Positions 1 to 53,349 of a stretch of 64,000 nucleotides of DNA are shown piece after piece; the stretch's first letter is position 1; every line of letters begins with the position of its first letter. The notes beneath the pieces were generated by a model. That model saw only the letters and a list, made by a program, of their open reading frames with translations. It had not been told where the DNA came from and did not search any database. A program made the translations under genes and the position numbers. Source of the DNA: Cymbomonas tetramitiformis (taxonomy: Eukaryota > Chlorophyta > Pyramimonadophyceae > Pyramimonadales > Pyramimonadaceae); NCBI GenBank assembly GCA_001247695.2, contig LGRX02003615.1, positions 49,918-113,917 of the forward strand, in the 5' to 3' direction.

Positions 1-397
1 AACACGTTGGTAAGATACCTCTTTGTTTAACGTAGTTTTTAGATTGTCCAAAACCGTTGATACCGTTGAATACTGACTCATGCCACTCGAAATAGCTATT
101 CCACCGCTGTAAATTTCTACACGAGAAATCAATTTTTCGATTCCATTTGGCAAAGTTGTGATAACTGAATCAGCTTGATTTGCGGCGTCCGTACAAGCTA
201 TGGCAGTATTGTTAGCACGACCTTTACAATGCATACTTAAACTTTTTCAGATTACACAAAACATTAACTGGAAGATTCAAAGTTATAACATCGTAAGGAT
301 TTACTTCGGTCAAGTTTGTTGTTTCAAGACGAAAATACTGAGTACTATATCCACTTAGTTTTTGAAGTCCAAATGCAAGACTATATGGTAAAGACAT
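1..397 (-). pseudogene. Candidate major capsid protein, N-terminal part, frameshifted and truncated by window edge
   Basis: Reading from the ATG at 397 gives about 57 codons beginning MSLPYSLAFG, ending at a stop close to 223. Directly after, a different frame continues open to the window edge from position 234, with segments such as LISRVEIYSGGIAIS. Together the two pieces look like the start of one beta-rich protein with a one-base shift near 225-234. The spacing of short beta strands, the LNLP segment and the GG-containing strand resemble the start of double jelly-roll capsid proteins of Polinton-like viruses, and the position next to another capsid-like gene fits. A TATA-rich stretch lies just upstream at about 400-425. 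The family call is from pattern memory, not alignment; the frame break is seen directly. Confidence 0.5.
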
Positions 398-1485
398 TTT
401 TCTATAATATATATAATATAATTTTGATTCACATATTCTTTTAATTTCAAAGATAATGCATAGTTTATAGATTGTTCATTTCCGCCATTTCGGGAAACGG
501 CTGTAGGAATTAGTCTGGATTTATTGTCGGTAATTGAAATTCTTAATTGAGAAAATTGAGAAGCTTGCACATCTATAAAAAAGTTTTCATCGTAATCTAA
601 ATAAGTGATAAATTGATTAGTTAAATCTGACGGTAACAATACTTTTCCTAAAATGTCACTACTAACGATTTGATTTTCTTTAAAATTATTTGAAAGATTT
701 GTGCTTTGTAAATTATTTGTGGGCAACGTTGATATTCTAAGATAAATAGCATCGTTTGTTTGTAAATTGCCAGGAAATTTGGAAATAAATACTTCATTTA
801 CAGTTTCGATATCGAACAAGTCTTTAATCTGTGAAATGTTCGTAAGACCAGCAACTGATTTGTTTGTTTCTCCCCCTATTATTTGGTCAACATCGTTATT
901 CTTTCCTGGTGAATTAAAGATATCATTTAATGCATCATCTAATGGACTTCCAGGCACTGCTTGAAAATCACCAGTTATTGAAAATGCAACAAATTTAATA
1001 TTGGGAGCAGGTTTACTAAGTGTAATCGTAAAATGTCCTGAAATTGCATCGTAAGTAACATCAACTCTATCCGCAGGCTTTGCAAACCCAAAGTTTGCAA
1101 CAAGAACATCTAAAATAATCGTTTCTAAAATCGTTTTTATATCGTCTAAATCTGTATAATTTCCATCAGGTATTCGACATTCATACAAATCATCAGAAGT
1201 TGTATTAGCTATATAGAAAATTCCGTTATATTCATTGATGGTATACCAAGTCTTTGAAGCCGAAAAACTGTTTACAATTATTTTCAATTTGTTTGTATTT
1301 TTATAGTTTGTTAATTGTGTTGGTATATTGATATTGATAATTCTGGAATCACCAAACGATGAAAGGTCTTCACTTGATAAATAAAGTGTACGTTCAGATA
1401 CAGTAATCACTCGGTAATAAGAAAACCCGCCGATAAGAAAGTAGCCAGCTTTTTTGATTTCTTCACAATATTTAACACATAACAC
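355..1485 (-). CDS. Capsid-like structural protein (penton / minor capsid candidate)
   Basis: About 376 residues rich in short beta strands, Asn, Thr and Ser. The C-terminal half (NDAIYLRISTLPTNN, then SQLRISITDNKSRLI) resembles the strand pattern of penton or minor capsid proteins of Polintons and virophages. It is followed on the same strand by the capsid candidate, overlapping its start by about 40 bases, as expected for a capsid operon. There is no in-frame ATG: the open frame begins at a GTG. An ATG at 1490 is in another frame and would join it by a one-base shift in the A-run near 1457, so either the start is mis-sequenced or this gene is also broken. A virion structural role is inferred; catalytic motifs are absent. 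Confidence 0.5.
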   Translation of the reverse strand: MLCVKYCEEIKKAGYFLIGGFSYYRVITVSERTLYLSSEDLSSFGDSRIININIPTQLTNYKNTNKLKIIVNSFSASKTWYTINEYNGIFYIANTTSDDLYECRIPDGNYTDLDDIKTILETIILDVLVANFGFAKPADRVDVTYDAISGHFTITLSKPAPNIKFVAFSITGDFQAVPGSPLDDALNDIFNSPGKNNDVDQIIGGETNKSVAGLTNISQIKDLFDIETVNEVFISKFPGNLQTNDAIYLRISTLPTNNLQSTNLSNNFKENQIVSSDILGKVLLPSDLTNQFITYLDYDENFFIDVQASQFSQLRISITDNKSRLIPTAVSRNGGNEQSINYALSLKLKEYVNQNYIIYIIEKCLYHIVLHLDFKN

Positions 1486-1548: not shown

Positions 1549-1800
1549 TTAAAATCGAGTGTTTACTGTATTACACTCATGACTATCTCTATTTATAATA
1601 TCAATATAGTTTTTATTCATTTCAATATCTTCCATTGAATCTCTATTCAATGGTAAAGGTAATTCAATGTTTCCATTATACATATCGTCATATAGTTGTG
1701 GTCTTTTGATATAATCATCAACAATCAATTCAATATAAAATGTGGATAAATCCGCAGGGTACAAAATCTGAGCATTTTTGATTAAGTGTTCACGTTCCAT
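1549..1800 (-). CDS. Small hypothetical protein
   Basis: An 83-residue acidic protein starting at an ATG at 1800. It overlaps the last 11 bases of the upstream lipase-like gene on the same strand, so the two are probably co-expressed. I do not recognise the family. There is no signal peptide or membrane segment. It lies between the lipase-like and capsid-like genes, so a minor virion or assembly role is possible but unsupported. Confidence 0.55.
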   Translation of the reverse strand: MEREHLIKNAQILYPADLSTFYIELIVDDYIKRPQLYDDMYNGNIELPLPLNRDSMEDIEMNKNYIDIINRDSHECNTVNTRF

Positions 1801-3103
1801 AATTTACCAAAACATTATTATTTTTATCTGATATCACATTTTCGTTAATAGATGTATACTTATTTGATTGTGATTTCTCTATACTTCTATCAAATGATGT
1901 CATTCTTTGAGGACCTTTGTTTGATATATAATCAGCCAATAATCTTGCTTCTAAGGGTGCGTCGTCATGCAAGTAATTTTTGTCGATATCGAAATTCACT
2001 CCTAACAGTCCTAATGGATTCAAATCTTCTGAAATTCGATTGTTAAATTCATCACTTCCAACATTTTTTGATGAAAGATTTCTTGCGTCATTCAAAGCAT
2101 TTCCGAACATCAACACATCAAGTCCGGTCCCTATAGTATTAAATGTAGATTTCAATAAATTTACCTTATTAACTTTGTTATTCTTTGGCATTTGAAAGAA
2201 CTGTTTGAGATTATGTGGCGAAGTGATATATTGATACGGTGCTTTGAATAAATCATAAGGGTTCTTGTTTTCGAAGTAATAAAACAACTTTCTATTTGAA
2301 TTTGATGATATTTTTAAAGCTCCCGCAGTGGCCCAATCAGTTACAACTCGATGAATATTTTGCGGTGCATTTCCATTAACTTTAGGAGTATGTATATGTG
2401 ATAGAAATGGATTGAACGTCGTCGATTTAACATTGAATTTCTCACCGACATGAATGGATTTCGCACCGCCCAAAGATGTCCCTAACAATTCAATGTCATG
2501 ATTAGGATACTTTTTCAATGTGTCTAAATATACCTTTTCAGCTCTTAAAAATGAATCTCGTGTTTCATGTTTACCTTTAATCACCGAAAATATGTCCGCT
2601 TTATCTTCATTTAAGTAGGATGGATTTGACGACGCACCGTGATATGCAATATGTATTTGATTATTTCCATTATTGAGTACTACGGCGTCATAATTTGAAA
2701 GCTCCGGGTCGATATTGAATTGATTGTTGAGAATATCTTTATTCAATTGTCTTTGAGCGGTCACATAGGTGTTATGTTCATAACCGCCCGGAAATAATAA
2801 ATTAGATTGATAATTTCTTGAACCGAGATAAGAAGATATTCCAACATGGAGAGCCTTTTCCCTAAGACTATTGGAAAACGATTGTTGAATTTGTGACGGT
2901 TGCAAATCACCTAATTGTTTGAACAAGCTATTCATTTGAACTCTATATCGTTTCTTTTCACTTTCATTTGACTCATACCTTTTATTCAAATCTGAAACTG
3001 AATAAATATTATTGTTATTTTGAAAATTAAGTATCTTGTTCGATGAATTTAACACTTTATTGTTGCAGAAATTATTCAATGGTGAGCACAAAGACCCTTG
3101 CAT
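1790..3103 (-). CDS. Alpha/beta-hydrolase, lipase class 3-like protein
   Basis: A 437-residue protein with a nucleophile-elbow motif GTSLGG at about residues 208-213, preceded by the strand DIELL. This is the G-x-S-x-G pattern of class 3 lipases and other alpha/beta hydrolases. An upstream AYHG segment (about residue 154) could form the oxyanion-hole strand. The N-terminal 150 residues are Asn-rich and look unstructured; the C-terminal 100 residues are of unknown function. Lipase-like proteins are known in some Polinton-like viruses and virophages. Its position with the capsid genes suggests a virion-associated activity used at entry or exit, which is inference. The ATG start at 3103 is divergent from the DUF5754-like gene at 3131, so the 27 bases between them hold both starts. 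Confidence 0.65.
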   Translation of the reverse strand: MQGSLCSPLNNFCNNKVLNSSNKILNFQNNNNIYSVSDLNKRYESNESEKKRYRVQMNSLFKQLGDLQPSQIQQSFSNSLREKALHVGISSYLGSRNYQSNLLFPGGYEHNTYVTAQRQLNKDILNNQFNIDPELSNYDAVVLNNGNNQIHIAYHGASSNPSYLNEDKADIFSVIKGKHETRDSFLRAEKVYLDTLKKYPNHDIELLGTSLGGAKSIHVGEKFNVKSTTFNPFLSHIHTPKVNGNAPQNIHRVVTDWATAGALKISSNSNRKLFYYFENKNPYDLFKAPYQYITSPHNLKQFFQMPKNNKVNKVNLLKSTFNTIGTGLDVLMFGNALNDARNLSSKNVGSDEFNNRISEDLNPLGLLGVNFDIDKNYLHDDAPLEARLLADYISNKGPQRMTSFDRSIEKSQSNKYTSINENVISDKNNNVLVNYGT

Positions 3104-6810: not shown

Positions 6811-7503
6811 CTATTTCGAAATTTTTTTATCGATTTCAATACCTACATAATTTCTTTTGAGATTTTTACATGCCAAACCTGAATTACCAATACCCATACA
6901 ACAATCTAAAACATTATCGTAAGGATTTGAGTAAGATTTGATTATCCATTCGAATAAATCGTACGGTTTACTACAAGGATGTTTGCTATTGTAGTTTCCA
7001 TTCGAAAATTTGATTACACTTCTTGGATACCTTTTTCCATCTTTACAAATGGTTGGTGTCCTATCGGTGTAATGAGTGTATAATTCTGTCCGAGGACCTT
7101 GACCTTGTCTTACATAGGGTTTGTGACCTTCAATCATTATTGGATTATATGTTGGTAAATGTTTGTAAAAGACATATATCATTTCATGACTTCTCAAAGG
7201 CATTTGATTTGCATGATAAAAGCCTAATGACATTGTTTTCTCATATACGATATCATATCGAAACATCTTCTTATTACTTTCAATAATGGTATGTCCAAAT
7301 TTAGTGGTAGTAGTAAAGATATAGGCTGAATGTCTTTTACCTATTCTCATTAATTCAATCCATAATTTATCTAAATCGAAAGGAATCTTGTCCCAAGAAC
7401 AATTTGTTTGATTGTATGGTAAATCACAAATGAAAAGGTCTATCGAATTTCTTGGAATGTTAGGGAAAATGTTAAAACAATCATCGTTGTGTAAATTCAA
7501 CAT
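6811..7503 (-). CDS. DNA amino-methyltransferase (N6-adenine or N4-cytosine)
   Basis: A protein of about 230 residues from the ATG at 7503. It has the catalytic motif DLPY at about residues 23-26 (motif IV) near the N-terminus. The AdoMet-binding motif comes at the C-terminal end (VLDCCMGIGNSGLACKNLKRNYVGIEID; FxGxG-like with C in place of F), after a HPCSKPYDLFEWII segment. This order, catalytic motif first and AdoMet motif last, is that of beta-class amino-methyltransferases. The target base is not predictable. The open frame continues upstream past 7503 but would overlap the divergent cytosine methyltransferase, so the ATG at 7503 is chosen. Placed head to head with that gene, it suggests joint regulation of two DNA-modifying enzymes. 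Confidence 0.85.
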   Translation of the reverse strand: MLNLHNDDCFNIFPNIPRNSIDLFICDLPYNQTNCSWDKIPFDLDKLWIELMRIGKRHSAYIFTTTTKFGHTIIESNKKMFRYDIVYEKTMSLGFYHANQMPLRSHEMIYVFYKHLPTYNPIMIEGHKPYVRQGQGPRTELYTHYTDRTPTICKDGKRYPRSVIKFSNGNYNSKHPCSKPYDLFEWIIKSYSNPYDNVLDCCMGIGNSGLACKNLKRNYVGIEIDKKISK

Positions 7504-7547
7504 AGTATTAGTTTCTAAAAAATAAAAAATGGTTAAAATAAACATAT
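7504..7547. promoter_or_regulatory. Divergent promoter between two DNA methyltransferases
   Basis: A 44-base AT-rich spacer separates the start codons of the two divergent methyltransferase genes. It contains ACATAT just before the plus-strand start, similar to the TATATA-type strings seen before other genes of this element. A shared bidirectional promoter is inferred from position. Confidence 0.45.
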
Positions 7548-8222
7548 ATGAAAATATTAGAACTTTTTTGCGGAACAAAATCATTTTCAAAAGCATTAAC
7601 GAAAGAATCCCCAAATTGTGAAATAACAACGTTAGATATTCTATCAAAGTATAACCCAACAATACAATGTAATATTCTTGAATGGAACTATCAAAACATA
7701 TGTGTTCCTAAAACATTTGATATCATATCGGCAAGTCCACCGTGTACGGAGTATTCTAAAGCACACCGACGCAAACCGAGAAATTTAGTATTGGCGGACG
7801 CTATTGTAAAACGCACCATTGAAATTATTGTTTTTTTTTTTCAACCGACATATTGGTATATTGAAAACCCGGCTGACGGTGGATTGTTGCAACATAGAGA
7901 ATTTATGAAACCTTTAGAAATATACAAACACACATGTTGTTATTGTAAATATGGATTTCAATATAGAAAAATGACAAACATATGGACAAACAAAGAACAT
8001 CTAAATCTAGAAGTATGTAACAAATATACTCCGTGTGATATCAAACAACAATATGGCAAACACATGTATACCGCTCAACGCACACAATCATCAAATTCCA
8101 AAGACAATATAGGAATACGTAATGCATATGTCATTCCACAATTGTTAATAATAGATTTAATCAAAGATTTGAATATTAAAAGAAACAATCGAAAATTGTT
8201 TTTGGAGAATAGTTTCTTTTAA
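7548..8222 (+). CDS. C5-cytosine DNA methyltransferase (viral, stand-alone)
   Basis: A 224-residue enzyme with the motifs of C5-cytosine methyltransferases. Motif I is LELFCGTKS (residues 4-12). Motif IV, ASPPCTEYS (about 61-69), has the Pro-Cys catalytic pair. Motif VI is ENP (about 103-105), where most family members have ENV. A later segment YCKYG...WTN (about 131-147) is also shared with the C-terminal methyltransferase of Gypsy-1. It is much shorter than bacterial Dcm-type enzymes and lacks a recognisable large target-recognition domain. It transfers a methyl group from AdoMet to DNA cytosine. The role is likely to mark or protect the element's DNA, which is inference. The start ATG at 7548 follows an AT-rich spacer. 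Confidence 0.9.
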   Translation: MKILELFCGTKSFSKALTKESPNCEITTLDILSKYNPTIQCNILEWNYQNICVPKTFDIISASPPCTEYSKAHRRKPRNLVLADAIVKRTIEIIVFFFQPTYWYIENPADGGLLQHREFMKPLEIYKHTCCYCKYGFQYRKMTNIWTNKEHLNLEVCNKYTPCDIKQQYGKHMYTAQRTQSSNSKDNIGIRNAYVIPQLLIIDLIKDLNIKRNNRKLFLENSFF

Positions 8223-10831: not shown

Positions 10832-11413
10832 ATGCCTACGAAAAAGTCTAATGATAAAGACAAAAAAGATGATAAAGGCAAAGCTCCATTGACCAAGGCA
10901 AAGAAAACCAATCTTAAGAAAGTCAAAAACCATAGGGCCGGAAATTTGAAAGCATCAAGTTCAAGACAATTAACAAAGGAACAATGGAGTAAAATTAATC
11001 AAATTGAAAATAAGAAAATAGACAAAGAATTTAGCAAAGAAAATAAACAACAAAAATTACAATCAGAAATAAAGAAATTTGAAAAAGAAAATGAGGACTT
11101 AATAGTCCGTAATGAGTTGCTTTCTAGACAAGAATATGAAGAACAATTTACGGACAAAGACGTTACAAAAGATTTTGTCGATAAAGGTGGAAATTCCGGA
11201 GTATCTATGAAAATCAAATTTAATAGATCTCTTAGTAATCCTTTAGTTTATTGGATGAATTTAATGAATAAAAAAATTGACCAAGCTTCGGAAGATGTAA
11301 AACATTTTCAGTTTGGTGTAAACTTTCAAGACGGTTCTTCAGAATTTTTAAGTGCAAAAAATGAAATTGAATTTTATAAAAAAATTAGAAGGAATGATTC
11401 AGTCCGGAGATGA
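10832..11413 (+). CDS. Hypothetical lysine-rich coiled-coil protein upstream of the polymerase
   Basis: A 193-residue protein. The first 45 residues are very basic and low in complexity. Residues 50-110 are helical and rich in Glu, Lys and Gln (likely coiled coil). The C-terminal part (SNPLVYWMNLMNKK, then HFQFGVNFQDGSSEF) looks folded. Its end overlaps the start of the polymerase frame by 53 bases. In protein-primed systems the terminal protein is often encoded just before or fused with the polymerase, so this is a positional candidate for it. No diagnostic motif was found. Confidence 0.55.
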   Translation: MPTKKSNDKDKKDDKGKAPLTKAKKTNLKKVKNHRAGNLKASSSRQLTKEQWSKINQIENKKIDKEFSKENKQQKLQSEIKKFEKENEDLIVRNELLSRQEYEEQFTDKDVTKDFVDKGGNSGVSMKIKFNRSLSNPLVYWMNLMNKKIDQASEDVKHFQFGVNFQDGSSEFLSAKNEIEFYKKIRRNDSVRR

Positions 11414-14400
11414 GAGAGGAGCTGTGAATTTTATCACAATTTCTTTATTAAATTTCAAAAAAATAAATGGAAAAGGCCAACCATTGTCGGTGCCAAAATC
11501 TGTGGAGGAATTGAAACAAAAGAAGAGTTGCATTACCGTCAAGGATGAACAATGTTTTGCTAAATCTTGCATAATCATGAATTACAAAGATAAAAAAGAC
11601 AATGAAGAAATAACATACAATGTCTACAATAAAATTTGCAACAATATTAAAAATCGTTTAACAAGAGAAGCAATAATTTTAATGAAAGAATTAGAATTTA
11701 ATGCTGAAGACGGTATAGGTTTTGATGACATTTATGTCTTTGAAGAAAAATTCAACAAAAATATTACAATTCACGGAATGACTGATTTGGGTTGTACAAT
11801 AATGTATCCGCCAAGTAAAGAAGGTTTGCCCGACAGACCGGAATGGAATTTTGTTTATTATCATTTAAATTCAAGTATTGGACACTACGAACCAATAACA
11901 AAAATTGCAGCATTTTATGGAATAGCCGACCGACCACGGTGTTTTAAATGTAAAAGTAAATTGTGTGATTTTTCTAAAAAGAAAACCAAACCATTTATTG
12001 AGTGGGAGAAAGCTATATACTGTGAAGATTGTAATATGAAATTTCCAAATCAGAAATGTTACAATTTACACCAAAAAGGAACAGCTTGTCAACATTTCCA
12101 TAGGTGCAAAAATGAGTGTAAAAAAGTCTATGATATAAGAAAAGAAAAAGAACACATTTGTGGACATGAATTTTGTCCAAATTGTAAATTATATTGTGAC
12201 ATGAGCACACATAAAAATCAATGTTATGTTACCCCCAAAAAACCAAAAGACATCATTGATGAAAGTAAAATAGGATTTTTTGATTTTGAAGCATACAATG
12301 AAACAAAGCACGAAGTGAATCTGAGTGTGACACAATATTCTAATGGAGAGGAATTTATTCACAACAATATTGGAGAAGTTTGCAAATTTTTATTTTCAAA
12401 CAAACATAAAGGGTTTACTTTTATAGCACATAATGGTAGTAAGTATGATTATGTACTTATCATAGAATACATAATGACAACGATGGATGAAATTCCTGAA
12501 ACGGTACAAAATGGTGGTAAAATAATGTATCTAAAATATCAAAACGTGACATTAATGGATAGCTATCTACATTTAACAAGTCCATTGAGTAAATTCTCAA
12601 AAATATTCGATTTAAAAGGTGAGAAGAAAGGGTTTTTTCCTCACAAGTTTAATACCCCTGAAAATAAAAATTATGTAGGCGAAATTCCCGATATATCATT
12701 TTATGGTTATAATCAAATGAAAGAGGATAGCCGAAATGAATTTTTGGAGTGGCATAAACAAATGACAAACGATGGATATATATTTGATATGCAAAAAGAA
12801 ATATTAGATTATTGTCAAAGTGATGTAAGAATTTTACGATTAGGATGGATGGAATATAGAAAGAAAATTTTAGAAATTACAAATAAAGAAATTGACCCCA
12901 CAGCCTACTTAACGATTGCATCATTGACACAAACAATTCATAGGTATTTACATATGCCCGAAAATTCGATAGCTATTTTAAATACTGTCATCAAAGGAAA
13001 ACAACAATCAAAAATAGGTGACATTTGGTTGGAATATGTGAAACATACAAATAAAATTGATAATTTAATCAAAGAATATAACATTCGTCATTTCCATTTT
13101 GGAAACAATGAAAGGCACAAATATGTCGATGGTTATGACCCTGAAACAAATAATATATATGAATTTCTTGGAGATTATTGGCATGGAAATCCAAAAACAA
13201 ATGGTAAGAATATGTTTAGAAAGAATTATGCCACAAATAAAACATTTTATCAACTGTATGAAGAGACTAAAAAAAGATTGGAAAAAATTCGAAGTCTTGG
13301 ATACAACATAGAAATTATGTGCGAAAGTGATTTTAAAGAATTACAAAAAATGACCAAAATGTTATCGATTTCGTAAATAGTTATAACACACCTATCGTGT
13401 TCAGAGATGCATTATTTGGTGGGAGAACAGACCCTAAAAGATTGTATTATAAATGCAAAAAAGGAGAAACCATTCGGTATGTAGATTTCACAAGCTTGTA
13501 TCCTTATGTCTTGAAATATTGTAAATTTCCATTAGGTCATCCTACAAAAATATATCAAGAAATTGATTTAAAAGGAGTCACTGATATTGAACAATTCTTT
13601 GGAGTAATAAAATGCACAATAATTCCACCAAATGATTTGGAAATGGCAGTTTTACCATTGAGGACCTTGGGACAGTCTAAAATGGAGAAATTGACTTTTC
13701 CTTTGACAAAAATGACTGGAACGTGGTGCACGGAAGAAGTAAAATTAGCGTTGAAAAAAGGATACACAATTGAAAAAATACATCAGATTGTCCACTGGGA
13801 AAATACATCTTATACTATTTTTGAAAGCTTTGTCAATACATTTTTAAGAATTAAACAAGAGGCAAGTGGGTACCCTGAGTGGGTAAAATCTGATGAAGAT
13901 AAGGATTTGTACATCAAAAAATATTTTGAAAAAGAGGGAATAATGTTACAAAAATACAAAATAAAAGATGGAGTATGGGTAGATAATATTGATTACAATG
14001 AAGGATTAAGAACCATTGCAAAATTATTTCTAAACAATCTGTGGGGAAGATATTGTTTAAAACCAAATAAAAGACAAAATAAATACATGAATAGTGCTGA
14101 AGTATATGATATTCTATCAGATTCAAGAAACGATAATGTACTCATTCAGCCAATAAAAAATAAAAATGGTGACGTTAAATATCTATTAGGATTTAATATA
14201 TTGAGTGAATATTCTGAAACGAACTGTACCGTCAATGAAGTTATTGGGGTTTTTACAACTGCACATGCAAGAATAAAATTATACAATTTAATGGACGATG
14301 TAGGATTCGACAAAGTTTTATATCACGATACCGACTCAGTGGTATACATTGAAGATGCACCAAATAAACATATGTTCAACATTATGGACGATGTAGGATT

Positions 14401-14890
14401 TGGTAAAGTTCTATCTCATGATATTGACTCGGTGATATACATCGAAAATGAAACAAATAAACAAGTATACACATAACAACTTGGTGATTATCTTGGAGAA
14501 TTGACTGACGAGCTATACAATGATAAGAAAAAAATATATAAGAAATGTATTGAATTTGTATCAACAGCACCTAAATCATATTCTTTAAAATTTGATGATG
14601 AAACAACGATGACTAAGGTAAAAGGATTTCCATTAAATTATGAAAATTCTCAAAGTATCAATCATGAAGAAATCAAAGATATCATTTTATACAATCACGA
14701 AAAAATTGTGGAATTAAAATACGATGTTCTTAGAAAACCAAGAAAAATTGATGAAAACAAACATTATGCAGCTCTTGGTATAGAAACAAGAAGCGAAACA
14801 AAATCATTTTCATTAAATTATGATAAAGGATACATTCAGTGGGACAATTTCAATATTTTACCTTGGGGACATAAAGATATTCCTTTATAA
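11361..14890 (+). pseudogene. Protein-primed family B DNA polymerase, broken by one frameshift and one stop
   Basis: The first part (11361-13376) has a Cys/His-rich zinc-binding region, then exonuclease motifs I (FFDFEAYNE), II (FIAHNGSKYDY) and III (DYCQSDVRIL). A segment YEFLGDYWHGNP is typical of Polinton-type polymerases. A one-base loss in an A-run near 13345 moves the frame. The second part (13397-14476) has palm motif A DFTSLYPYV, motif B KLFLNNLWGRY and motif C HDTDSVVYI. A TAA at 14474-14476 then interrupts the same frame, which continues to 14890. Motif C lies in a tandemly duplicated 93-base unit whose second copy has HDIDS. This enzyme would replicate the element using a protein primer. 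The breaks and the motif C duplication indicate a non-functional copy. Confidence 0.9.
14291..14476 (+). repeat. In-frame 93-base tandem duplication covering polymerase motif C
   Basis: Two copies begin with ATGGACGATGTAGGATT at 14291 and 14384, a period of 93 bases (31 codons). The first keeps the catalytic HDTDS; the second has HDIDS and ends at the internal TAA. The copies differ at roughly one base in five, so the duplication is not recent, or it arose by recombination with a diverged polymerase. Confidence 0.85.
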
Positions 14891-14892
14891 TA

Positions 14893-16047
14893 ATGGGCAA
14901 GTCAATCACTGAAAAACAAATACAAGACTTTTATTTAGACCCCGAAATCGGATTAAGTGCTGTATCACCATTCACGGCCAAATTAAAATCTCTTGGTTAT
15001 AAAGTCACACAAAAACAAGTCAAGGAAGCTATAGAAAAAACTGAAGTTAATCAAACCTTTTCTCAAAAAAAGAAAATCAATAGAAAAGAGTTATTTCCTA
15101 TTTACGGCAAAGACCCTAATAAGAATTATGTTCAGGCTGATTTAGCATTTATTCCTGAATTCAAAAAACAAAATAGAGGTTATTCCGTTATATTGACGGC
15201 TATCAATATCAATGCAAGGAAAAGCTATGCATATCCATTAAAAAAAACTGTTAAACTTAAAAATAACAAAAACATTGATTATGCTGAAGGAATAATTCCC
15301 GCTTTCAAAAAGTTAATAAAAGATTCAAAAATGAATGTATTGACTACGGACAATGGTGTAGAATTTACAAATAAATCTATGAAAAAAATATTAAAGGACA
15401 ACAATATTGAGCATTATTTAAATGAAACCGAAGACCATACTACTATGGGTATGGTAGAAAGATTCAATAGAACATTAAAATTGAAATTTAAAAAAATAGA
15501 AGAAAGTAAAGACACCGTAAACTGGATTGATTATTTGGATTCTGTTGTCAAAAATTATAATAGTACACAAAATTCTGCAAATGTCGATAAATCAACTCCT
15601 GATAATATGAACCTAACAAAGACCATCAGAAATATTTTGTTGAAAAGGAATAAATTGACTAAGCTTCTTGAAAAAATAGATATAAAACCGGGTGATAAAG
15701 TTAGGATTAAAATTAAAACTAAAACGTTTGATAAAGAATCTCAACGATGGTCGACAAAAATATATAAAGTAAAATCTATGAAAGGATTGAGTTATATTAT
15801 CGAAGACGGTAAAGAAACTTTGGCACGTCGGTATAAACCACGCGAATTATTGGAAATTAAAGGTAACAATTCTAATAATAAGAAATCCACTGATGAACCT
15901 ACAGTTTCTGAATTAGTTTCTAAACAAAATAAAAAAGAAAGAACTCTTAGGAAAGAAGGTGTCTCATCTTCTAATCGAATATCTAAAAGGACAAGAAGTC
16001 AAAATAAAAATAATAAAGATAATGAAACGGAAATTGATTTACGATGA
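14893..16047 (+). CDS. rve-family integrase of Polinton type
   Basis: A 384-residue integrase with the D, D, E catalytic triad of retroviral-type integrases: QADLAFI (about residue 76), LTTDNGVEF (about 153) and MVERFNRTLK (about 188). The part after the core (GDKVRIKIKTKTFDKESQRWSTKIYKVKS) resembles the SH3-like C-terminal DNA-binding segment. The last 70 residues are basic and low in complexity. It would insert the element into host DNA, usually with a short target duplication. The ATG at 14893 follows the polymerase stop by two bases. The frame is intact, unlike the polymerase. Confidence 0.92.
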   Translation: MGKSITEKQIQDFYLDPEIGLSAVSPFTAKLKSLGYKVTQKQVKEAIEKTEVNQTFSQKKKINRKELFPIYGKDPNKNYVQADLAFIPEFKKQNRGYSVILTAININARKSYAYPLKKTVKLKNNKNIDYAEGIIPAFKKLIKDSKMNVLTTDNGVEFTNKSMKKILKDNNIEHYLNETEDHTTMGMVERFNRTLKLKFKKIEESKDTVNWIDYLDSVVKNYNSTQNSANVDKSTPDNMNLTKTIRNILLKRNKLTKLLEKIDIKPGDKVRIKIKTKTFDKESQRWSTKIYKVKSMKGLSYIIEDGKETLARRYKPRELLEIKGNNSNNKKSTDEPTVSELVSKQNKKERTLRKEGVSSSNRISKRTRSQNKNNKDNETEIDLR

Positions 16048-38313: not shown

Positions 38314-38828
38314 TGTGCTAGGACAACACACGGTGTCATGCGCGGATGACTCAGCAATGTCATACATGCCAGAAGTGTCATACGCGCCTTACAGCATTAG
38401 CGCCCGAGACCCCTGTTGAGGAAGAGACCCCCCTTATATGGGAGTACACAGTACCACTGTACTGTGTAATAATGTGACATGTAGAATACTGGCACATCAT
38501 ACTGCATGATAATGTAGTACAAGCATATGATAGGTTGATGAGACTTGGCCATGCTGACTAGGATTACCTCAGAGAGCTGAGTGAATAAGTAATGGCCAAG
38601 GCCAAAGAAACAGTTGAGATTTCTAGAGTAAAACAGCCGCATGGCAAAAAGTCAATATAATACCTAATTCTTACTGCAAATATATGCACTGAGTCTGGAC
38701 ATAGTTCCTAAGAATCGACATAGCTTGATTAGTCTTATATAGTGCATAATATAGAACCTTGCACTATATATGATCCACAAGTAGTTTCACAGTCACTGTC
38801 AAGTAGAGGTTTAGTACTGCCTCCTACA
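38314..38828 (+). repeat. Gypsy-1 5' LTR
   Basis: Starts TGTGCTAGGACAACACACGG and ends CTGCCTCCTACA, i.e. TG...CA ends. A TATA-like CCTTATATGGG lies near 38432, followed by GTACACAGTACCACTGTACTG, probably part of the promoter. The upstream 5 bases GTCTG are the target duplication. Confidence 0.95.
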
Positions 38829-38831
38829 AAA

Positions 38832-38840: not shown

Positions 38841-38851
38841 AACTGGAAAAC

Positions 38852-40694: not shown

Positions 40695-43600
40695 ATGTCC
40701 TCTTCACGGCAAGCTTCTTCGCTGTATGTGCCGCCTCAGCGGCGCTCGGGGGTGGCGGAGGCTGCTTCTGGGCCCTCCGGGCTCTCTAGCTCGGCCCGGG
40801 TGTTTCAGCTCCGGGATGGGCTTGGGGCTTTGGGGCCCACCCCGTACTTTGTCCCGGAATGGGAGGCGCCAGCCGGGGCGCGGCGGGGCAGCAGGGGGGG
40901 GGAGCAGTACAACGCTCTCTGGAGGGCGAATACGCGCTTCTGGCGAGCGCGCCTCTACCTCAAGAGGAACGTCGCACCCAAGCATCGCTGCCTGCCACGC
41001 CCACGAATTTCCCCGACAGCTCGCGTGACTCTCCTGGGCTGGTATCTTCCAATGTACGCACGTTTGAGTGCTACTCTACACCCCAGCAGCGTGCAGGGGG
41101 TGCAGGTGCCTCAGGTCTACAACGTAGCCAACCAGCTCTCGAGGAGCTCAACACGGTCGCTATAGCCACCGCTCATAATTTGAGATCATCTCCTCATAGC
41201 GAAGCTGTAGTTGACCATTTGCCTTTGGCACCAGAGCATCTCGTTGGAAACCAGACCCATGAGAGCAACATATTTACGCCTAGGCGTGAAAGTGCTCCTC
41301 CAAGTGGCGAGCGCGGTTTGTCAAGCGTGAACGAGTGGAGCGTCAGGCTGGCACGCCAAGCTGTAGCAGTGGATATTCTAGCGGTATGTGCATTGCGTAA
41401 TTGGTGGAGTACTTGGACAGCACGAGTGCTCAGCGGGCGTGTTTCATCTGCACTTACGACATGGCACCTACGTGCCCGTCTCGCGCGCATGCGTGTTTCC
41501 CTTACAGCATGGCACGAGCGAGTTCACCGCAAGAACCAGGTCCAACGCAAAAAGCAAGATTTTGCTGGACACGCAAGTTCACGATTGGCGTCCCGGCTCT
41601 TGAGTGCATGGCGAGAAGAACAACGTCGTGTAAAAGAGATCACTCTCGAAATCACGGCGTGCAACATAGCCCGGTCCGAGTTCTACGTGAGGAAGTGTAT
41701 GAAAGCGTGGAAGGCTACCGTGGACTTCGCTTCCAAGTGCACCACCTTTGCGGTCCAGCGTGAACAACATGTGAAGCGCGAAGTCCTCCACGAGTGGTCA
41801 GCTCTGACGGACACGCCTGACGTGACCCCGAAGCAATGGGCGACCTTGCGTAGACATCTTCGCCGCCTGTGTGGCCAAGAAGACTCCATCGCTGCAATCA
41901 CATGGGAGGTGCAGCTGAGAACGAAGAGTGGAGAGCAACGCGTGATCCCATCTCGTGGACTCCTTCTGTCGCATGTTACCTCAGCAAACCACCATTATCA
42001 TCACCTCCACTCTGCACGACCACTCGTCACGACCATCCCAGCCAACCGGCCTGCAAGGCTGGTGCGGTTGGGAGTGAGCGTCGAGGAGGTGATAAAGACT
42101 CTAAGGCGTACAACCACCGTGGGAGCAAGTGTTCAACAGCATGGCGCACAATCTGTACCTAGCCGCAACCCCTATGGCGTCTTGTCGTCTGAAGATGACT
42201 CCACGATCGATGAGGAAGACGTTCATTCCGCTGACTCCGCCCCACAACCACCTCGATCAAAAGCTTCATCCGCCCCACGACCCACACAACGAGAACGTGC
42301 TGTACCTGTCCAGGCTTTGACGGAGTTAGCCCACGAGAAGGAGGTGGCGAAGCAGGAGCGGAAGCGGCAGAAGTTGGCCAAGCGCAAGCTCGCCAAGGCT
42401 CGACGTCGCAGTGACGAAGGTAAACTGATGTACGACTCCACCTCTTCGTCCAGTGAGGAGAAGTCCACACTTTCATCGTGTCAAACATCTTCTTCTGAAG
42501 CGCTCTCCTCTGACGCCTCGCACACCTCTTCATCAAGGAGCTCTCGGCGAAAGGGTGGACGCCAACGGCGGCGCCAAGCTCAAGTCACGCGACACGAGCG
42601 GCAACTACGAGAGCTGCAAGAGGAGTCCGAACGAGTCGCGTTAGATGCGGCCACTGCGCACCAAGCGCAGCTCACAGCGTTGCGCATGGACATGCACAAT
42701 GCCGTGGAGGAAGCAACCCGGATGCATCAGGAGCTCCGCACCACGGTGTGCCAAGAAGCGCGACGGGCCGCTCTCGAATCTGCTGAGGAGCAGATAGCGC
42801 GCATGCAGCATGCCGCGGACGTTGTCTCGCATCAGCATGAGCAAGCTGTAGCATCGCAGGCGGAGGAAGCTGCACGTCATCACCAACAACTTCGAGAAAT
42901 GCAGCGCGCCGCGGAAGAGCAACGCCAGCAACTTGACCAAGCAGCTCGAGAGCAACGACTGCTGGAGCAACAAGTGGCGGAGAGCAAGATAGTGGTGCAA
43001 GCCGCCCTTGAAGCCGCTGACGGACGAGCGCACTCACGGCCAGAACAACCACCTAATACCCCCGCGAGCTATGCGACCGTCACAAGTGACGCTCAAGAAG
43101 CTGAACACGAAGCTCTGATGGTGCCCCCGTCAGCCACGACTGTGGACGTACGGGGCCACAAAGGCGTGACGTTCGAGGAGGACGCCTCCAAGCGTGCATC
43201 TTCCCCCACGAGTGTGCATGACCGCCTAGCCAAAATGGATTGGAGGTCCATTAGTGTGCCAGCCGTTACCGCTATCCGTGCACACGTGGAGGAGCACTTA
43301 CCTGGCCACGTGGGCAAGATGGAAGCGGAACGCATGTTCTGTGACGTAGCAAGAAGGTACCGAGACCATGACCTAGCGTCTGGGTGTGGACCGCCGGTCT
43401 CCGAAGCCCCGGCCTCTCAACTTCCTTCACCACCTTTGGCGGGAACGGCGATCGTTTGTTGCGTGTACGACGAAGTCGCGTCCAGCACGTCCAACGTTCC
43501 GTGCTCGAGATGCGCTCGTAGCCCGCAGCCCCCTGTAGCCATATGGAATTGCGGGCTTACAGCTCTTTCAGACTTGTCGGAAACCACTCAATTCCTGCCG

Positions 43601-45034
43601 TTGTGTATATATTGCACGCGCGGGGTTTGGCCGGGAGCCTTTGACCGCTTCCCTTCAGTGACCCCGAGGCCATCCTCAGCAATTGGTGGGACCAGTGGGG
43701 GCGGCGGAGGCGACGACGATGGAGGCGATGGTGATGACGACGGTGACGACCCGGGAGGACCCGGTGGCCATCAAGGGGGGGGGAATGAGCCGCCTGGCGA
43801 CCCCACTTCTGACGCGCCTAGCGACCCCTCGCGGAATCTTGGAGATGGACGTCGCGGCCATGGCGGGGGCGGAGGCGGTGACGATCCGCCCGACGATGAG
43901 ACGTCCTACAGCTTCGGTTCGAGTAGGAGGTCCTCGTACAATGATGGCAGGCAGCAAAGGGAGGAGTACACGAGGCACTCATATGCCCTCAAGGCCGCGA
44001 AGGACATCATGTCCTTGTACTCAGCACCGCTGGAAGGGTCCACGAACCCCTTCGGCCCGCTGTTGCGGTTCGTGGACGAGTTCGACAGGTGCTTAGCCCT
44101 TCCAGTGGTGCTCCTCGCGATGAACACCCCGTGCAACGTGCCCAACGGAGCGTTCGAGCTCGGAGAGCCGATTCTCTCGGTGCATATCTTGTTGAAGGAG
44201 ATCACCCAGCATTGCTTCCCTACGCCTAGCTCCGAAGGAACGGAGCTGCGAGGGGTTCTCCTGGATGCCGAGGCGGACAAGTCGTTGAACCTTGAGAAGG
44301 TCATTGTGCCGCTGGCGAAGCTGATCGTGCCGCTGAAGAGTGAAATGGCCACCTTGGGCTCGTTCCTACGCCGAGTACGCCAAACTCAAGGACGCATGGC
44401 GACACCGCGCAAAGTGCGCGAGTTTTGGGATGGACTGCATCTAGCCCATCGCGTAGTGACCATGTTGGCGACACACGAGCTCACCACACCGGTTCCGGAA
44501 TCCGACCTCCTGGACGTCTTCCTCTCGGGCTTATCCGCGGAGGTACGGAAGGAGGCGTTCGAGATTGCAGAGCGGAAGGGGACCCCCTTGATCCTCCTCG
44601 ACCGCGCCCTTCCAGCCAGTCGACGCCTAGCGCTGGAATACGCCATTGAGGCGGAGTTGCATTTGAACAACGCGACGAGTAGGAGAGCGCCAGTGCAGCT
44701 ACTGGCAGCGGTGGAGGTCTCGGAGGAGCTACTAGCTCTAGCCGAAGATCGTCCCGCGGGTGCAACTCCTACTGGGCAACGTCTGGGCTCCCCGGAGTAC
44801 ACTGGTTGCAGGTTGTGCCAAAGCAAAGAGCACTATGCTCGAGAGTGCCCACAGGCTGCTCTTCGTAAGAAGGAGTGGGCCAAAGCACTTCTGGCTGAAA
44901 CTTTGGACATGGTCATGCACGAAGTGGAAACGGATGAATACTGCGACGTGCTCAACGCGGTGTTGCCAAAGGAACTAATGGATTTTGCCGCGGAGGACTC
45001 CCTCGAGCTCGGAGTACCCTCCAAGTCCCAATGA
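40695..45034 (+). CDS. gag: Gypsy-1 Gag with Sfi1-like Trp repeats, coiled coil and zinc knuckle
   Basis: Starts at the ATG at 40695 (MSSSRQASSLYVPPQ) and reads to a nine-G run (40894-40902), after which the main frame, one base back, runs to 45034 (1,391 codons from the in-frame ATG at 40859). Either a -1 slip in the G-run joins both parts or translation starts at 40859. Region 1 has helical repeats with paired Trp (ALRNWWSTW, ALTTWHLRARL, SLTAWHERVH, LLSAWREEQRR, CMKAWKATV). Region 2 is a long Glu/Gln/Arg coiled coil (about 42,550-43,030). A Gly/Asp-rich stretch follows, then a retrotransposon-gag domain (from about 43,980) and a CX2CX4HX4C knuckle (CRLCQSKEHYAREC, 44,811-44,852). It is far longer than typical Gypsy Gag. 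The stop overlaps the pol start as ATGA. Confidence 0.85.
40893..40903 (+). promoter_or_regulatory. Candidate -1 frameshift site A-G9-A in gag
   Basis: The codons AGG GGG GGG GAG in the first frame become AGG GGG GGG GGA after a one-base slip back. The gag remnant at 25902-27178 has A-G9-A in the identical codon phase (26097-26107). A conserved slippery site is a good explanation; a shared homopolymer length error is the alternative. Confidence 0.5.
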
Positions 45035-48000
45035 GCTCGGGCCCACATCCCCGCGATGAGCCCCCCTCCTACCTCTCGGAGCAGCAGTTGCGGGAGAAGT
45101 GGAGAAGAGCCCGTCGACGTCAAAGGCGGAGTGCTCCTTGCACAGGATACCTAGACTCCGATGAGCTCAACATGCTACCCTCGCGGGCGATGACTAGCCC
45201 TCCTCCCGCGCCGGAGCGTCAAGTGGTCGAAGCTCGCCTTCGCAAGGAAGCCAAGTCTCCAGTGTGTACGAGCGAGGACCTCACAGACGACTCCCAGCAC
45301 GTTGAGAAACGGCACCGACGTACCCTGAAGGTGACCGAGAGCTACCGCGTGCACTTGGAGCCAACGGGCCAACCATTGCAAGGTTGGCAATTTCGAGCTG
45401 TCCGAGGGCAAGGGACGAGCGCTTTACGCTCCAAAGTGGGCACACGGGGCTTGAGGTCCTCCATCAAGGCTCTGGAAACGGACCTTGCACCGCCCCGTAC
45501 ACCTCCGCGGAGCACGAGCCCACCGCTTTGGAGAGCCGGGCATCGACGCAGCAGCCGAGGACCCACGCGGTCACCAACGCACAGCGCGGTTACCGCCAAC
45601 AAGCGAGAAGCTCGAGCTCGGTCACCCTTACCCGCAGCCCTTAACAAACTTAAAAGGCTGCAAGAATACCGACGACGACGTCAAGACATCCAGCTTGGGC
45701 GTCGACCTCGTACGCCCTCACCTAACGGCAGCACGACTGCCGAGGCAACCTCAACCACATGGAGTGACCGCCCCCGACCATGGCTGTCACCGACCCATGC
45801 AGCTCGAGCTGAAGGAGCACCAAGGAGGAGGTGGCTCAGTGGGCTGGAGAAGGTTCGCCAACGAGAGAAGCTTAAGCGGGATTATGCCAGTGGCCTCCCA
45901 TATTTGGAGCGGGACTCTCCTATAGACGAAGAGCTACTGCACATCTTAGCCAAGGAACAAGCGCAAGAGGAAGTAGAAGATGGACTCCTCCAGTACGCAA
46001 GTGACTTGGCGACGAATGATATGGCGCGAGCAGCGAAGGACAAGGTCATCCAAGTGGCCTTGTACCCACCTGATCACCCACCCAGGGACCTGGTGCAGAC
46101 CGCCACCGCTCAAGGGCTCTTGGCCGATGCAGGCACCTACGAGTTACCATGGGACTCTGACATGGACGACCCTCCTGACCTAGGCGACCCTCATGCCAAG
46201 GACGACCCCTTCATATGCCAGCTCAACAGCATCATCGACAGTGGGGACATGAGCCCTGGCTGGAGTGATCTCTTGGCGGCTGTATCAACATCGCGAGCGC
46301 CACCTCGACAGATCAACAATTCCAAGGCCCCCACCTTGTTGTTGTTCTGGGCGTACGTGAACGGTCGTCGCGTAAAGGTGCTGGTGGACAGTGGGTGCTC
46401 CACCAACATTATCTCGGACAAGACTGTACGCAGCATTCCCTCCCTGACGCCTCGACCTCACGAAAACCCCATGCGAGTGCGAGTAGCCGACGGCGCGTCG
46501 TACGATGTCAACACGTGCGTCCGTCCTCGACTGCAAGCAGAGACCACCAAGGGGTTGTACGTCAAGCAATTGGAGCTCAGAGTGATGCCCATTGATCTTT
46601 GCGTGGATATTATCCTTGGAGGACCTTGGCTAGCCTCTCACTCCCCAGTCACCCTGGATTACTCCCGATGGGGTTCCATCCGGTTTGGTTCTGGAAGCAA
46701 GAGAGTGGTCATTACAGGCTGCTCTCCGGGAACGCCAGACCCCTCAAGACCCAAGGATAAGGCCATGGCGTTGGTACAAGGAGTCTTGTTGGACCCCAAA
46801 AGGGTACGCAAGGACCTTCGAGCCCTCCAATCTAAGGATGAGTGTGCCTTCGTGGTGTACCTAGCACCCGACGGCACCTTCGGGGCGGTCGCCTGTAATG
46901 AAGAGACCGACGCCGAGACCAACGCCAAGCCCAGGGACGCTTCGTCCGAGCGTTGCGCCACGTCTAGCTCTGAGCAGCAAGACGCCCAAGTCGCGGGCGC
47001 CATGGACTCCTCCCAAGCGGATCTGGGTGAGACGGACGCGCCTGCGCTGATGTCCGCGTCAGACACTGACTCCGAAGCCGAGGACGCTCTACTCCTCCGG
47101 GAATCTGTGCGGCCTAGCCCAGGCACCAGTGACGAGGACCACTTGGATAAGGTGTACGCAACAGTGGAGTCCACCCGCCCACAAAACTTTGACGTGGTCG
47201 CGCTGGAGGGTGCTGTTGGCCCCCCGGCGGACAATGCGCCATCCAACAACCTACATCTGGGGTTCTTCCAGAGCAAGCGCGAAGCTTTGGGAGCATTTGC
47301 TTTATTACCTGAGCACGTACGTGCCCAAGCAATCGACGACCACGCGCAAGGGAAACCACCCACCTGGCATGCCGAAGCCGCAGCCGCGCTGGAGCAGGGA
47401 AGGCGCTTACTCCGCGAACGTCGGCCGCGACGCAAGCGTGTGCGCTGGAGCGACGAGAAGCCCCATACTGAAGGTTTATCTCAAGAGCAGGCCGCTCCAG
47501 TGGCCGAGGAACCACCGTCACCGCCGCCCAAGCCCCATGCCATGGAAGCGGAGGAGCCGGACGAGATTGACGAGACAGTGTCCCCGGAGATATGGCAACA
47601 GCTGCGCGACCTTGAGGAGGAGTTCAGGGACGTCATATGTACGGAGCTGCCTGACTCCGTCCAAAGCCGCGACTACAAGAACAACATTCGCTTGCGATCC
47701 GACTGGAGTGGGCAGCCGCTACATCGGCGTAACTACAAGTTGTCGCAAGAGGAGCTTCGGCAACTTCGTGCACAACTTGACGAGCTGTTGGCCAAGGGGT
47801 ACATCCGTCCATCGGCGTCTCCCTGGGGTTGTCCGGTACTTATGGTGCCGAAGCCGAGCAACCCTAAGGAGCTGCGCTTGGTTATCGACTACAGGTCGAT
47901 AAATGAGATCACGGTCAAGGACAAGTACCCTCTTCCTGACGTACAAACCCTCCTCGATGACCTACAAGGAGCAACCGTCTTCTCCACAGCAGACGCCTTG

Positions 48001-52834: not shown

Positions 52835-53349
52835 TGTGCTAGGACAACACACGGTGTCATGCGCGGATGACTCAGCAATGTCATACATGCCAGAAGTGTC
52901 ATACGCGCCTTACAGCATTAGCGCCCGAGACCCCTGTTGAGGAAGAGACCCCCCTTATATGGGAGTACACAGTACCACTGTACTGTGTAATAATGTGACA
53001 TGTAGAATACTGGCACATCATACTGCATGATAATGTAGTACAAGCATATGATAGGTTGATGAGACTTGGCCATGCTGACTAGGATTACCTCAGAGAGCTG
53101 AGTGAATAAGTAATGGCCAAGGCCAAAGAAACAGTTGAGATTTCTAGAGTAAAACAGCCGCATGGCAAAAAGTCAATATAATACCTAATTCTTACTGCAA
53201 GTATATGCACTGAGTCTGGACATAGTTCCTAAGAATCGACATAGCTTGATTAGTCTTATATAGTGCATAATATAGAACCTTGCACTATATATGATCCACA
53301 AGTAGTTTCACAGACACTGTCAAGTAGAGGTTTAGTACTGCCTCCTACA
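52835..53349 (+). repeat. Gypsy-1 3' LTR
   Basis: 515 bases matching 38314-38828 with two mismatches noticed. Followed directly by the target duplication GTCTG at 53350-53354. Confidence 0.95.

What the first reader, a model, noticed from the sequence alone, without database searches (positions are those of the whole stretch)
7548..8222. The virus-like element and Gypsy-1 carry homologous C5-cytosine methyltransferases
The stand-alone viral enzyme and the C-terminal domain of Gypsy-1 pol (about 51,916-52,540) share, in the same order, LFCGT.S, ASPPCTEYS.A, RTIEII/RTLEII, QP followed by IENP, YCKYG..Y.K and WTN. This goes beyond generic motifs; ENP instead of ENV and the YCKYG...WTN tail are specific to this pair. 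It suggests gene flow between a DNA virus and a retrotransposon within one host lineage, or convergent capture from one source.
Basis: seen in the sequence. Interest (0 to 1): 0.9.

Follow-up and report, generated by a model that had tools for sequence, protein, structure and literature searches.

The report
Related DNA methylases in two parasites
In the genome of a green alga, a virus-like element and a jumping gene each carry a small enzyme that probably adds methyl groups to DNA; the two enzymes belong to one large family, but the evidence speaks for separate, older acquisitions rather than a recent handover between these two parasites.

Summary
The homology is real: the 224-aa viral ORF (7548-8222) and the C-terminus of Gypsy-1 pol (about 51919-52566) align at 40% over 220 residues, E 5e-49. 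The signature is not specific to the pair: of 295 rows held, ENP occurs in 289 and YC.YG..[YF].K in 232. The host is Cymbomonas tetramitiformis. In a 100-row tree the viral enzyme sits with DNMTs of this host's other Polinton-like elements (99/98), the Gypsy enzyme with pol-type and a few stand-alone DNMTs (99/95), and many stand-alone enzymes lie between. A joint clade is rejected (AU p 0.010). The pair (42.0%) is no more alike than other viral x retrotransposon pairs (mean 42.2, n=330). Recent exchange in this host is therefore not supported; separate, older recruitment from one compact DNMT family is. The Gypsy pol also has a Dam-like domain; the order RNaseH-Dam-integrase-chromo-DNMT recurs in two diverged pols. 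Pooled dN/dS is 0.14 (Gypsy) and 0.29 (viral copies), below 1. Likely role, inferred: methylating the element's own DNA. Activity, target site and methylation were not tested.

The parts
7548..8222 (+). Compact stand-alone C5-cytosine methyltransferase (224 aa) of the Polinton-like element; predicted catalytic Cys66 (TGT at 7743-7745) in SPPC, motif VI is ENP
   Evidence: PF00145 E 1.6e-4, 21.6 bits, just under the cut-off of 22; phrog_757 'DNA methyltransferase' E 1.1e-11; alignment A5
6811..7503 (-). N6/N4-type DNA methyltransferase divergently paired with the C5 gene (ORF 6811..7662; coding part probably starts near 7503, by eye)
   Evidence: PF01555 E 1.7e-22; NCBIfam adenine-methyltransferase matches far below their cut-offs; at least a piece of it adjacent in 30 of 30 loci L001-L030
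8256..9170 (+). P-loop ATPase, read here as the viral packaging (A32-type) ATPase
   Evidence: AAA_7 E 9e-5, below cut-off; no PHROG match; the A32 label is by recall; downstream of the DNMT, whole or in pieces, in 30 of 30 loci L001-L030
11352..14476 (+). Family B DNA polymerase of the same element, in two ORFs (11352..13376 and 13397..14476)
   Evidence: PF03175 E 3.7e-22 and 2.5e-31
14893..16047 (+). rve-type integrase of the same AT-rich stretch
   Evidence: PF00665 E 1.2e-6, below cut-off
38314..38828 (+). 5' LTR of Gypsy-1 (515 bp)
   Evidence: 99.6% identical to 52835-53349, 2 mismatches; begins TG, purine-rich tract before the 3' copy (by eye)
52835..53349 (+). 3' LTR of Gypsy-1 (515 bp)
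40859..45034 (+). Gypsy-1 gag-like ORF (1391 aa) with a weak zinc-knuckle match
   Evidence: zf-CCHC_2 E 0.0013, below cut-off
45031..52779 (+). Gypsy-1 pol (2582 aa): protease, RT, RNase H, Dam-like, integrase, chromodomain, DNMT
   Evidence: Pfam matches (integrase core rve below cut-off, integrase zinc-binding domain above)
49531..49740 (+). Dam-like N6-adenine methyltransferase match between RNase H and integrase (pol residues 1501-1570)
   Evidence: PF05869 E 1.4e-9; 40-43% identical stretch at the same place in L169 and L280
51499..51627 (+). Chromodomain (pol residues 2157-2199)
   Evidence: PF00385 E 2.8e-6
51919..52566 (+). C5-cytosine methyltransferase domain of Gypsy-1 pol (residues 2297-2512); predicted catalytic Cys at residue 2361
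   Evidence: PF00145 23.5 bits, cut-off 22; blastp with the viral ORF E 5e-49

Best explanation
Both genes encode members of one compact (about 205-225 aa) C5-DNA methyltransferase family that also occurs in phages and in other Polinton-like elements and retrotransposon pols. The viral gene belongs to the set carried by Polinton-like elements of Cymbomonas. The Gypsy domain belongs to a separate set, in which an enzyme of this family stands behind the chromodomain of a chromovirus-type pol that also carries a Dam-like domain; this pol diversified deeply and multiplied. The likeness of the two window genes is family likeness, not a recent exchange. Most likely action (inferred): each element methylates its own new DNA. 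The Gypsy enzyme would be carried to the cDNA or insertion site by the integrase-chromodomain part of the polyprotein; the viral enzyme would act with the neighbouring N6/N4 methyltransferase on viral DNA before packaging, against restriction nucleases or host recognition. Shown: homology, domain order, phylogeny, dN/dS below 1, copy number. Inferred: catalysis, target site, purpose, direction of capture (stand-alone enzyme into pol).
For: Trees. PLV set of 15 rows 99/98; retro rows plus A2 (27 rows) 99/95; those plus A1 and N7 (52 rows) 100/94. AU rejection of PLV+retro as one clade, p 0.010 and 0.0105. Average identity of the pair. In 38 of 38 own-genome loci with a PLV-type DNMT that I examined (L001-L030, the first being the window's own copy, and L272-L279) an ATPase gene related to the window's, whole or in pieces, lies within about 2 kb. 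Six of those DNMTs put in the tree, and the five of them used, fall in the PLV set. Same RNaseH-Dam-INT-chromo-DNMT order in Gypsy-1, a second host subfamily (L280) and contig L169. Pooled dN/dS 0.138 for Gypsy-1 DNMT (30 copies), 0.289 for close PLV copies (30), 0.13-0.18 for four wider PLV pairs. At least 150 Gypsy-1 DNMT matches at 97-100% identity (150 scored of 7,973 candidates). De novo CG methylation in yeast is reported for SymbioDIRS-Dnmt3 domains, with self-methylation of cDNA proposed (PMC5890265, passages).
Against: Where the intermediate stand-alone enzymes (A1, A2, N7, N32) come from is unknown, so the donor of the Gypsy domain is not identified. The retro set alone is weakly supported (71/48); A2 could be its sister or be derived from it. 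dN/dS of the close PLV DNMT copies (0.289) is higher than that of their neighbours (N6/N4 0.150 in 21 rows, ATPase 0.132 in 26), so constraint is weaker there. No CpG depletion in either element (observed/expected 0.92 in Gypsy-1, 0.99 and 1.05 in two PLV stretches, 0.87 in the Gypsy DNMT stretch; 0.70 and 0.85 elsewhere in the window), so there is no clear footprint of long CG methylation. The enzymes match only about the first 110 of 324 positions of the C5 family profile. In PMC5890265 the KnitGypsy-Dnmt3 and SymbioLINE domains showed no activity in yeast, called inconclusive there. The window viral copy has Ser at a nearly invariant Trp site.
Confidence: 0.65

Rival explanations
1. Direct transfer of the DNMT gene between a Polinton-like element and a Gypsy element inside the Cymbomonas lineage.
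For: Both element types are abundant in the same genome; a Ty3/Gypsy element inside a PLV of this species is reported (PMC10675990, passages); all six strict motifs co-occur only in the two window proteins and one nearest relative of each; in one of nine 40-column windows the pair is 3 points more alike than any other retro row is to the virus.
Against: AU test p 0.010 and 0.0105; pair identity 42.0% against a mean of 42.2% over 330 PLV x retro pairs; in the other eight windows the pair does not exceed the best other retro row.
Confidence: 0.06
2. The Gypsy domain was captured once from a eukaryotic small DNA virus (another PLV lineage or a relative), with A1 and A2 being viral kin of the donor.
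For: With the 'other' rows as outgroup, the retro rows sit inside a series of single-domain enzymes; the members of the wider clade whose context I know are PLV-borne (38 own-genome loci) or in retrotransposon pols; no A1, A2, N7 or N32 member among 129 IMG/VR and 66 GTDB loci.
Confidence: 0.38
3. Both were taken independently from phages of the bacteria that this alga eats.
For: Related compact enzymes occur in Caudoviricetes, an inovirus and a haloarchaeal virus; the host is a bacterivore (PMC10675990, abstract).
Against: In the trees that hold identified phage rows (8, 4), these lie outside the clade that joins the PLV, retro and intermediate rows (100/81). The 100-row tree held no identified phage.
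Confidence: 0.13
4. The domains are inactive passengers carried along by element replication.
For: Only the N-terminal part of the C5 family profile is matched; the window viral copy has lost a nearly invariant Trp; about 44 of 150 viral matches listed have an internal stop (counted by eye); most viral elements of this host are reported as transcriptionally silent (PMC10675990, section 6 part 1).
Against: Catalytic SPPC and EN motifs kept; dN/dS 0.13-0.29; 145 of 150 Gypsy-1 matches listed without a stop (counted by eye).
Confidence: 0.14

Closest known systems
KnitGypsy-Dnmt3, SymbioDIRS-Dnmt3 and SymbioLINE-Dnmt (PMC5890265, passages)
   Same: A C5 methyltransferase built into a retrotransposon ORF, in one case a Gypsy pol, with purifying selection reported
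   Different: KnitGypsy and SymbioDIRS are described as Dnmt3-related. Here the kin found are compact phage/virus-type enzymes and the pol also carries a Dam-like domain; no Dnmt3 was put in my tree
Cymbomonas high-copy scaffolds with chromodomain, RNase H and cytosine methyltransferase (PMC5741210, passage seen)
   Same: Probably the same class of element in the same alga (inference)
   Different: In the passages seen, only three scaffolds above 10,000x coverage are mentioned; no element, Dam domain or virus link
Polinton-like viruses of Cymbomonas (PLVA, PLVB, PLV2; PMC10675990)
   Same: Low-GC elements with polymerase, ATPase and integrase-type genes in the same genome
   Different: The words methyltransferase and methylase do not occur in that paper's main text; capsid genes and subgroup of the window element were not identified here
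Compact phage DNMTs (phrog_757; Bacillus phages BM15 and CM1, Haloferax tailed virus 1, Inoviridae sp.)
   Same: Single-domain enzymes of like size with ENP and related motifs
   Different: 26-35% identical to the window enzymes, outside their clade in the tree

Membership tests
C5-cytosine DNA methyltransferases (PF00145) | SAM-binding motif I, catalytic Cys in PC (motif IV) and EN (motif VI); motif names by recall | tested here: met
   G9, C66, E106-N107 invariant in 60 aligned rows; Pfam matches, the viral one 0.4 bits under its cut-off
C5-cytosine DNA methyltransferases (PF00145) | Match over the full domain including the target-recognition part | tested here: inconclusive
   Profile match covers about positions 1-112 of 324; structure prediction could not be run
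Ty3/Gypsy chromoviruses | LTRs, and protease-RT-RNase H-integrase-chromodomain order | tested here: met
   515-bp LTRs 99.6% alike; Pfam order
Ty3/Gypsy chromoviruses | Chlamyvir clade of algal chromoviruses | not tested
   no RT or chromodomain tree was built
Dnmt3-type retrotransposon DNMTs (KnitGypsy-Dnmt3) | DNMT domain derived from Dnmt3 | tested here: inconclusive
   Profile search of solved structures gives 18 hits: DNMT2-type 2, DNMT1 16, no DNMT3; no Dnmt3 rows were put in the tree
Polinton-like viruses | PolB, packaging ATPase and integrase or transposase gene | tested here: met
   PolB by Pfam; rve match below cut-off; ATPase by weak P-loop match and position
Polinton-like viruses | Major and minor capsid genes | tested here: inconclusive
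   ORFs 355..1485 and 1790..3103 gave no capsid family in Pfam; a relative of 1790..3103 lies about 3 kb from the DNMT in L272, L274 and L275

The most novel reading that the evidence does not exclude
One family of mobile-element DNA methyltransferases has served both DNA viruses and retrotransposons of algae. A virus-borne enzyme was captured by a chromovirus pol that also holds a Dam-like domain, giving Gypsy elements that mark their DNA at both cytosine and adenine, while Polinton-like viruses of the same host carry their own paired C5 and N6/N4 enzymes. The two kinds of parasite may thus write overlapping DNA marks in the same nucleus, as shared camouflage or as a weapon against each other or against giant viruses.
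Probability: 0.3. Interest if true: 0.75.

Novelty: new variant of a known kind. Interest (0 to 1): 0.45.

Why it matters
Retrotransposon-borne cytosine methyltransferases have been reported from dinoflagellates and charophytes, mostly as Dnmt3-related domains. A phage/virus-type source, joined to a Dam-like domain in a high-copy element, would widen where such domains come from and makes it testable whether a retrotransposon can set both 5mC and 6mA on its host genome. It also shows that motif likeness between two parasites in one window need not mean transfer between them.

Tried and rejected
Pair-specific signature: rejected by counts over 295 rows. Recent gene conversion: not supported by identity and sliding windows. 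Joint origin of both methyltransferase pairs: the PLV N6/N4 enzyme and the Gypsy Dam domain show no similarity (best E 0.66 over 6 residues). CpG depletion as a methylation footprint: none clear.

Context of the intermediate clades: eight scans of viral contigs. Searches gave phage-type rows and one PLV outside the clade (L032); one search gave a fragment of a phage-type enzyme (L267) and one unrelated contig; one search gave four contigs with no relative; two searches gave none. One GTDB scan gave 67 loci, 66 with an extracted ORF: L169 is a clear retrotransposon DNMT, L229 a 49-bit best hit to that set, 64 outside. The P0126 search of the own genome, meant to find A1 members, gave 150 matches at 50-55%; the four loci I fetched from them are PLV-set members, so no A1 member is shown there.

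Not known: whether the L169 subfamily also lives in Cymbomonas; the search with P0191 did not complete. A pol fragment of the same branch, P0121, finds no own-genome match above 46% (101 scored of 10,324 candidates), which suggests that this branch is not from this alga.

Rows dropped: in the 103-row tree nine retro rows that are fragments or near-copies were left out (P0111, P0112, P0123, P0136, P0141, P0154, P0177, P0209, P0216), 36 'other' rows were picked by hand, and L032, L034, L035, L037 and L039 (three of them long branches) were left out; all nine identified phage or viral rows (L031-L039) were in the tree. In the 100-row tree representatives of each group were picked by hand and no identified phage was used. 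Group labels A1-A4, N7 and N32 were read off earlier trees, so the AU tests used groups seen beforehand; A1, N7 and N32 are not clean clades. Of 36 rows labelled retro (or P0150/P0156 beside them), 9 have a chromodomain match at E 0.01; the rest are so labelled by tree position and length. None of 48 A1/A2/N7 rows has a retrotransposon domain; N32 was not scanned. P0150 and P0156 were labelled A2 and retro. P0241 fell outside the PLV set and was left out of its AU test.

Structure prediction was asked for eleven times with A5 and once with A6 and never accepted.

Full report
WHAT IS THERE. The window is G000:C2903:49918-113917 of an 851.7 Mb assembly. A named Cymbomonas tetramitiformis protein (CYMTET_48611, P0113) is found in it once at 100% over 253 of 253 residues, so the host is taken to be that alga. 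From 6 to 18 kb the window is AT-rich (27-32% G+C, against 44-68% from 18 kb on) and holds a Polinton-like element: PolB in two ORFs, an rve-type integrase, a P-loop ATPase, an N6/N4 methyltransferase and the 224-aa C5 methyltransferase. I found no capsid gene by Pfam. Further right lies Gypsy-1: 515-bp LTRs with 2 mismatches, a gag-like ORF and a 2582-aa pol with protease, RT, RNase H, a Dam-like domain, integrase, chromodomain and the C5 methyltransferase domain.

OBSERVATION. The two enzymes align over 220 residues at 40% identity, E 5e-49. They are features of a large family rather than of the pair: of 295 rows, 289 have ENP and 232 have YC.YG..[YF].K. All six strict motifs together are found in four rows, the two window proteins and one nearest relative of each. 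Ranked by blastp score among the 295 rows held (self counted), Gypsy is 84th for the virus and the virus 97th for Gypsy.

PHYLOGENY. Two protein searches returned 107 relatives of the viral enzyme (all listed) and 2,921 of the Gypsy domain (best 120 listed); a third, with a profile of 21 intermediates, returned 7,992 of 8,000 scored candidates (best 120 listed). IQ-TREE trees of 103 and 100 rows agree on the main point. The viral enzyme sits with other PLV enzymes of the same genome (99/98). The Gypsy enzyme sits with pol-type enzymes plus a stand-alone group A2 (99/95), and these join the stand-alone A1 and N7 rows at 100/94. N32, which includes P0272 from a Tetraselmis gene set (organism read from the entry name, by recall), is a further stand-alone group. 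Identified phage rows lie outside (8, 4; none was used). Holding PLV and retro rows together is rejected (log-likelihood lower by 36.7 and 38.6; AU p 0.010 and 0.0105). On the tree alignment the pair is 42.0% identical; over 330 PLV x retro pairs the mean is 42.2, s.d. 2.7. Hence no sign of exchange between these two elements or in this host. Support for the retro rows alone is weak (71/48), so one or several captures cannot be told apart.

WHERE THE RELATIVES LIVE. Own genome, PLV type: at least 150 matches at 72-100% identity (150 scored of 7,425 candidates), about 44 of them with an internal stop (counted by eye). In 30 of 30 loci L001-L030 at least a piece of the N6/N4 gene and the ATPase gene, whole or in pieces, flank the DNMT. 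Eight further loci (L272-L279), chosen by me from the hit lists, also have a related ATPase gene (39-41% identical to the window's in seven, 91% in one) within about 2 kb, in differing arrangements. Own genome, Gypsy type: at least 150 Gypsy-1 DNMT matches at 97-100% (150 scored of 7,973), 145 without a stop, and further subfamilies. L280, from one of them, and L169, a contig binned with a Verrucomicrobium (TMED86, a marine survey by recall) but encoding a pol, both show RNase H, Dam, integrase, chromodomain and DNMT in that order, with DNMT identities to Gypsy-1 of 47% and 40% and Dam identities of 43% and 40% (the order of the other domains in L169 and L280 was read by eye). The dual-methyltransferase pol is therefore deeply diverged. 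P0121, a pol fragment of the L169 branch, has no own-genome match above 46% (101 scored of 10,324), which suggests that it is not confined to this alga; the direct search with P0191 did not complete. Phage records with related enzymes: 11 and 12; seven loci taken from them were placed in the tree, outside. Of 195 IMG/VR and GTDB loci compared by blastp, 193 had their best match outside groups A1-A4, N7 and N32; the exceptions are L169 and one weak 49-bit match, L229.

SELECTION AND FOOTPRINT. Pooled dN/dS is 0.138 for 30 Gypsy-1 DNMT copies and 0.289 for 30 close PLV copies (dS 0.024 and 0.021). The PLV neighbours give lower values: N6/N4 0.150 (21 rows) and ATPase 0.132 (26 rows). Window against L272-L275 gives 0.13-0.18, with dS above 1 in three of the four pairs, so those are rough. 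CpG observed/expected is 0.92 in Gypsy-1, 0.87 in its DNMT stretch and 0.99-1.05 in two PLV stretches, against 0.70 and 0.85 elsewhere in the window, so there is no clear sign of long CG methylation followed by deamination in these elements.

HOW IT MAY WORK. The SPPC cysteine and EN are invariant in the aligned rows, so methyl transfer to cytosine is likely but untested. Placement of the domain after integrase and chromodomain suggests delivery to new cDNA or to the insertion site, in line with the self-methylation proposed for other retrotransposon DNMTs. In that work SymbioDIRS-Dnmt3 domains methylated CG de novo in yeast, while KnitGypsy and SymbioLINE domains showed no activity, called inconclusive (PMC5890265, passages). 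For the virus, pairing with an N6/N4 enzyme suggests modification of viral DNA. Protection from restriction enzymes of rival giant viruses or of the host was proposed for adenine methylases of cryptophyte PLVs (PMC12220804, passages); a defence role for retrotransposon methylases was speculated in PMC6338049 (part 2 of its main section read).

LITERATURE. PMC5890265 (passages) reports DNMTs in LINE, DIRS and Gypsy elements. PMC5741210 (passages) reports three Cymbomonas scaffolds above 10,000x coverage with homology to a chromodomain peptide, RNase H and a cytosine methyltransferase. PMC10120064 (passages) labels an MTase in a PLV figure legend and Ty3/Gypsy near or in PLVs. PMC10675990 (abstract, section 5, section 6 part 1, passages) describes the PLVs of this alga; its main text has neither 'methyltransferase' nor 'methylase'. 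PMC12344493 (passages) reports DNMT3s embedded in LTR Copia and DIRS elements, and 'orphan' DNMTs held to have come through viral sources. PMC12477816 (passages) reports an N4/N6-type methyltransferase gene in an algal DNA transposon. I found no description of a Gypsy pol with both a Dam-like and a C5 domain, nor of the PLV-retrotransposon family link, in the listings and the passages read; [quoted passage not shown] Most subscription papers are not held there.

VERDICT. A sound observation with an over-read signature. The pair is an instance of a wide family. The more interesting thing is the deeply diverged dual-methyltransferase Gypsy and its place among stand-alone enzymes of which those with a context known to me in the wider clade are borne by Polinton-like elements.

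Noticed in passing
window 11352-14476: The PolB gene of the Polinton-like element is split into two ORFs (11352..13376 and 13397..14476), so this copy looks broken there.
   Followed up: no
window 38830-39353: Two identical 259-nt copies, 265 bp apart, lie directly behind the 5' LTR of Gypsy-1.
   Followed up: no
L169 13-3978: A contig in a GTDB Verrucomicrobiaceae genome (TMED86) encodes a Gypsy-type pol with Dam and C5 methyltransferase domains; probably a mis-binned eukaryotic contig.
   Followed up: partly
L032 2631-3530: A viral contig with an ATPase-like ORF and two long capsid-sized ORFs, read by eye as a Polinton-like virus, carries a divergent compact DNMT (33% to the window's) that falls outside the clade of the window genes.
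   Followed up: partly
L278 1039-3429: Polinton-like elements of the same host differ in the large genes next to a DNMT of the same set (a 796-aa ORF that looks like a primase-helicase here, other large ORFs in L276 and L279); read by eye.
   Followed up: no
window 56000-64000: Strong positive AT skew (0.36-0.53) over 8 kb with overlapping long ORFs on the + strand (55987..58305, 58242..61928, 61868..63796); not identified.
   Followed up: no
P0272 (EukProt entry jgi/Tetstr1): A stand-alone compact DNMT cluster with 23 member sequences, named after a Tetraselmis gene set (organism by recall), a genus known for Polinton-like viruses.
   Followed up: partly
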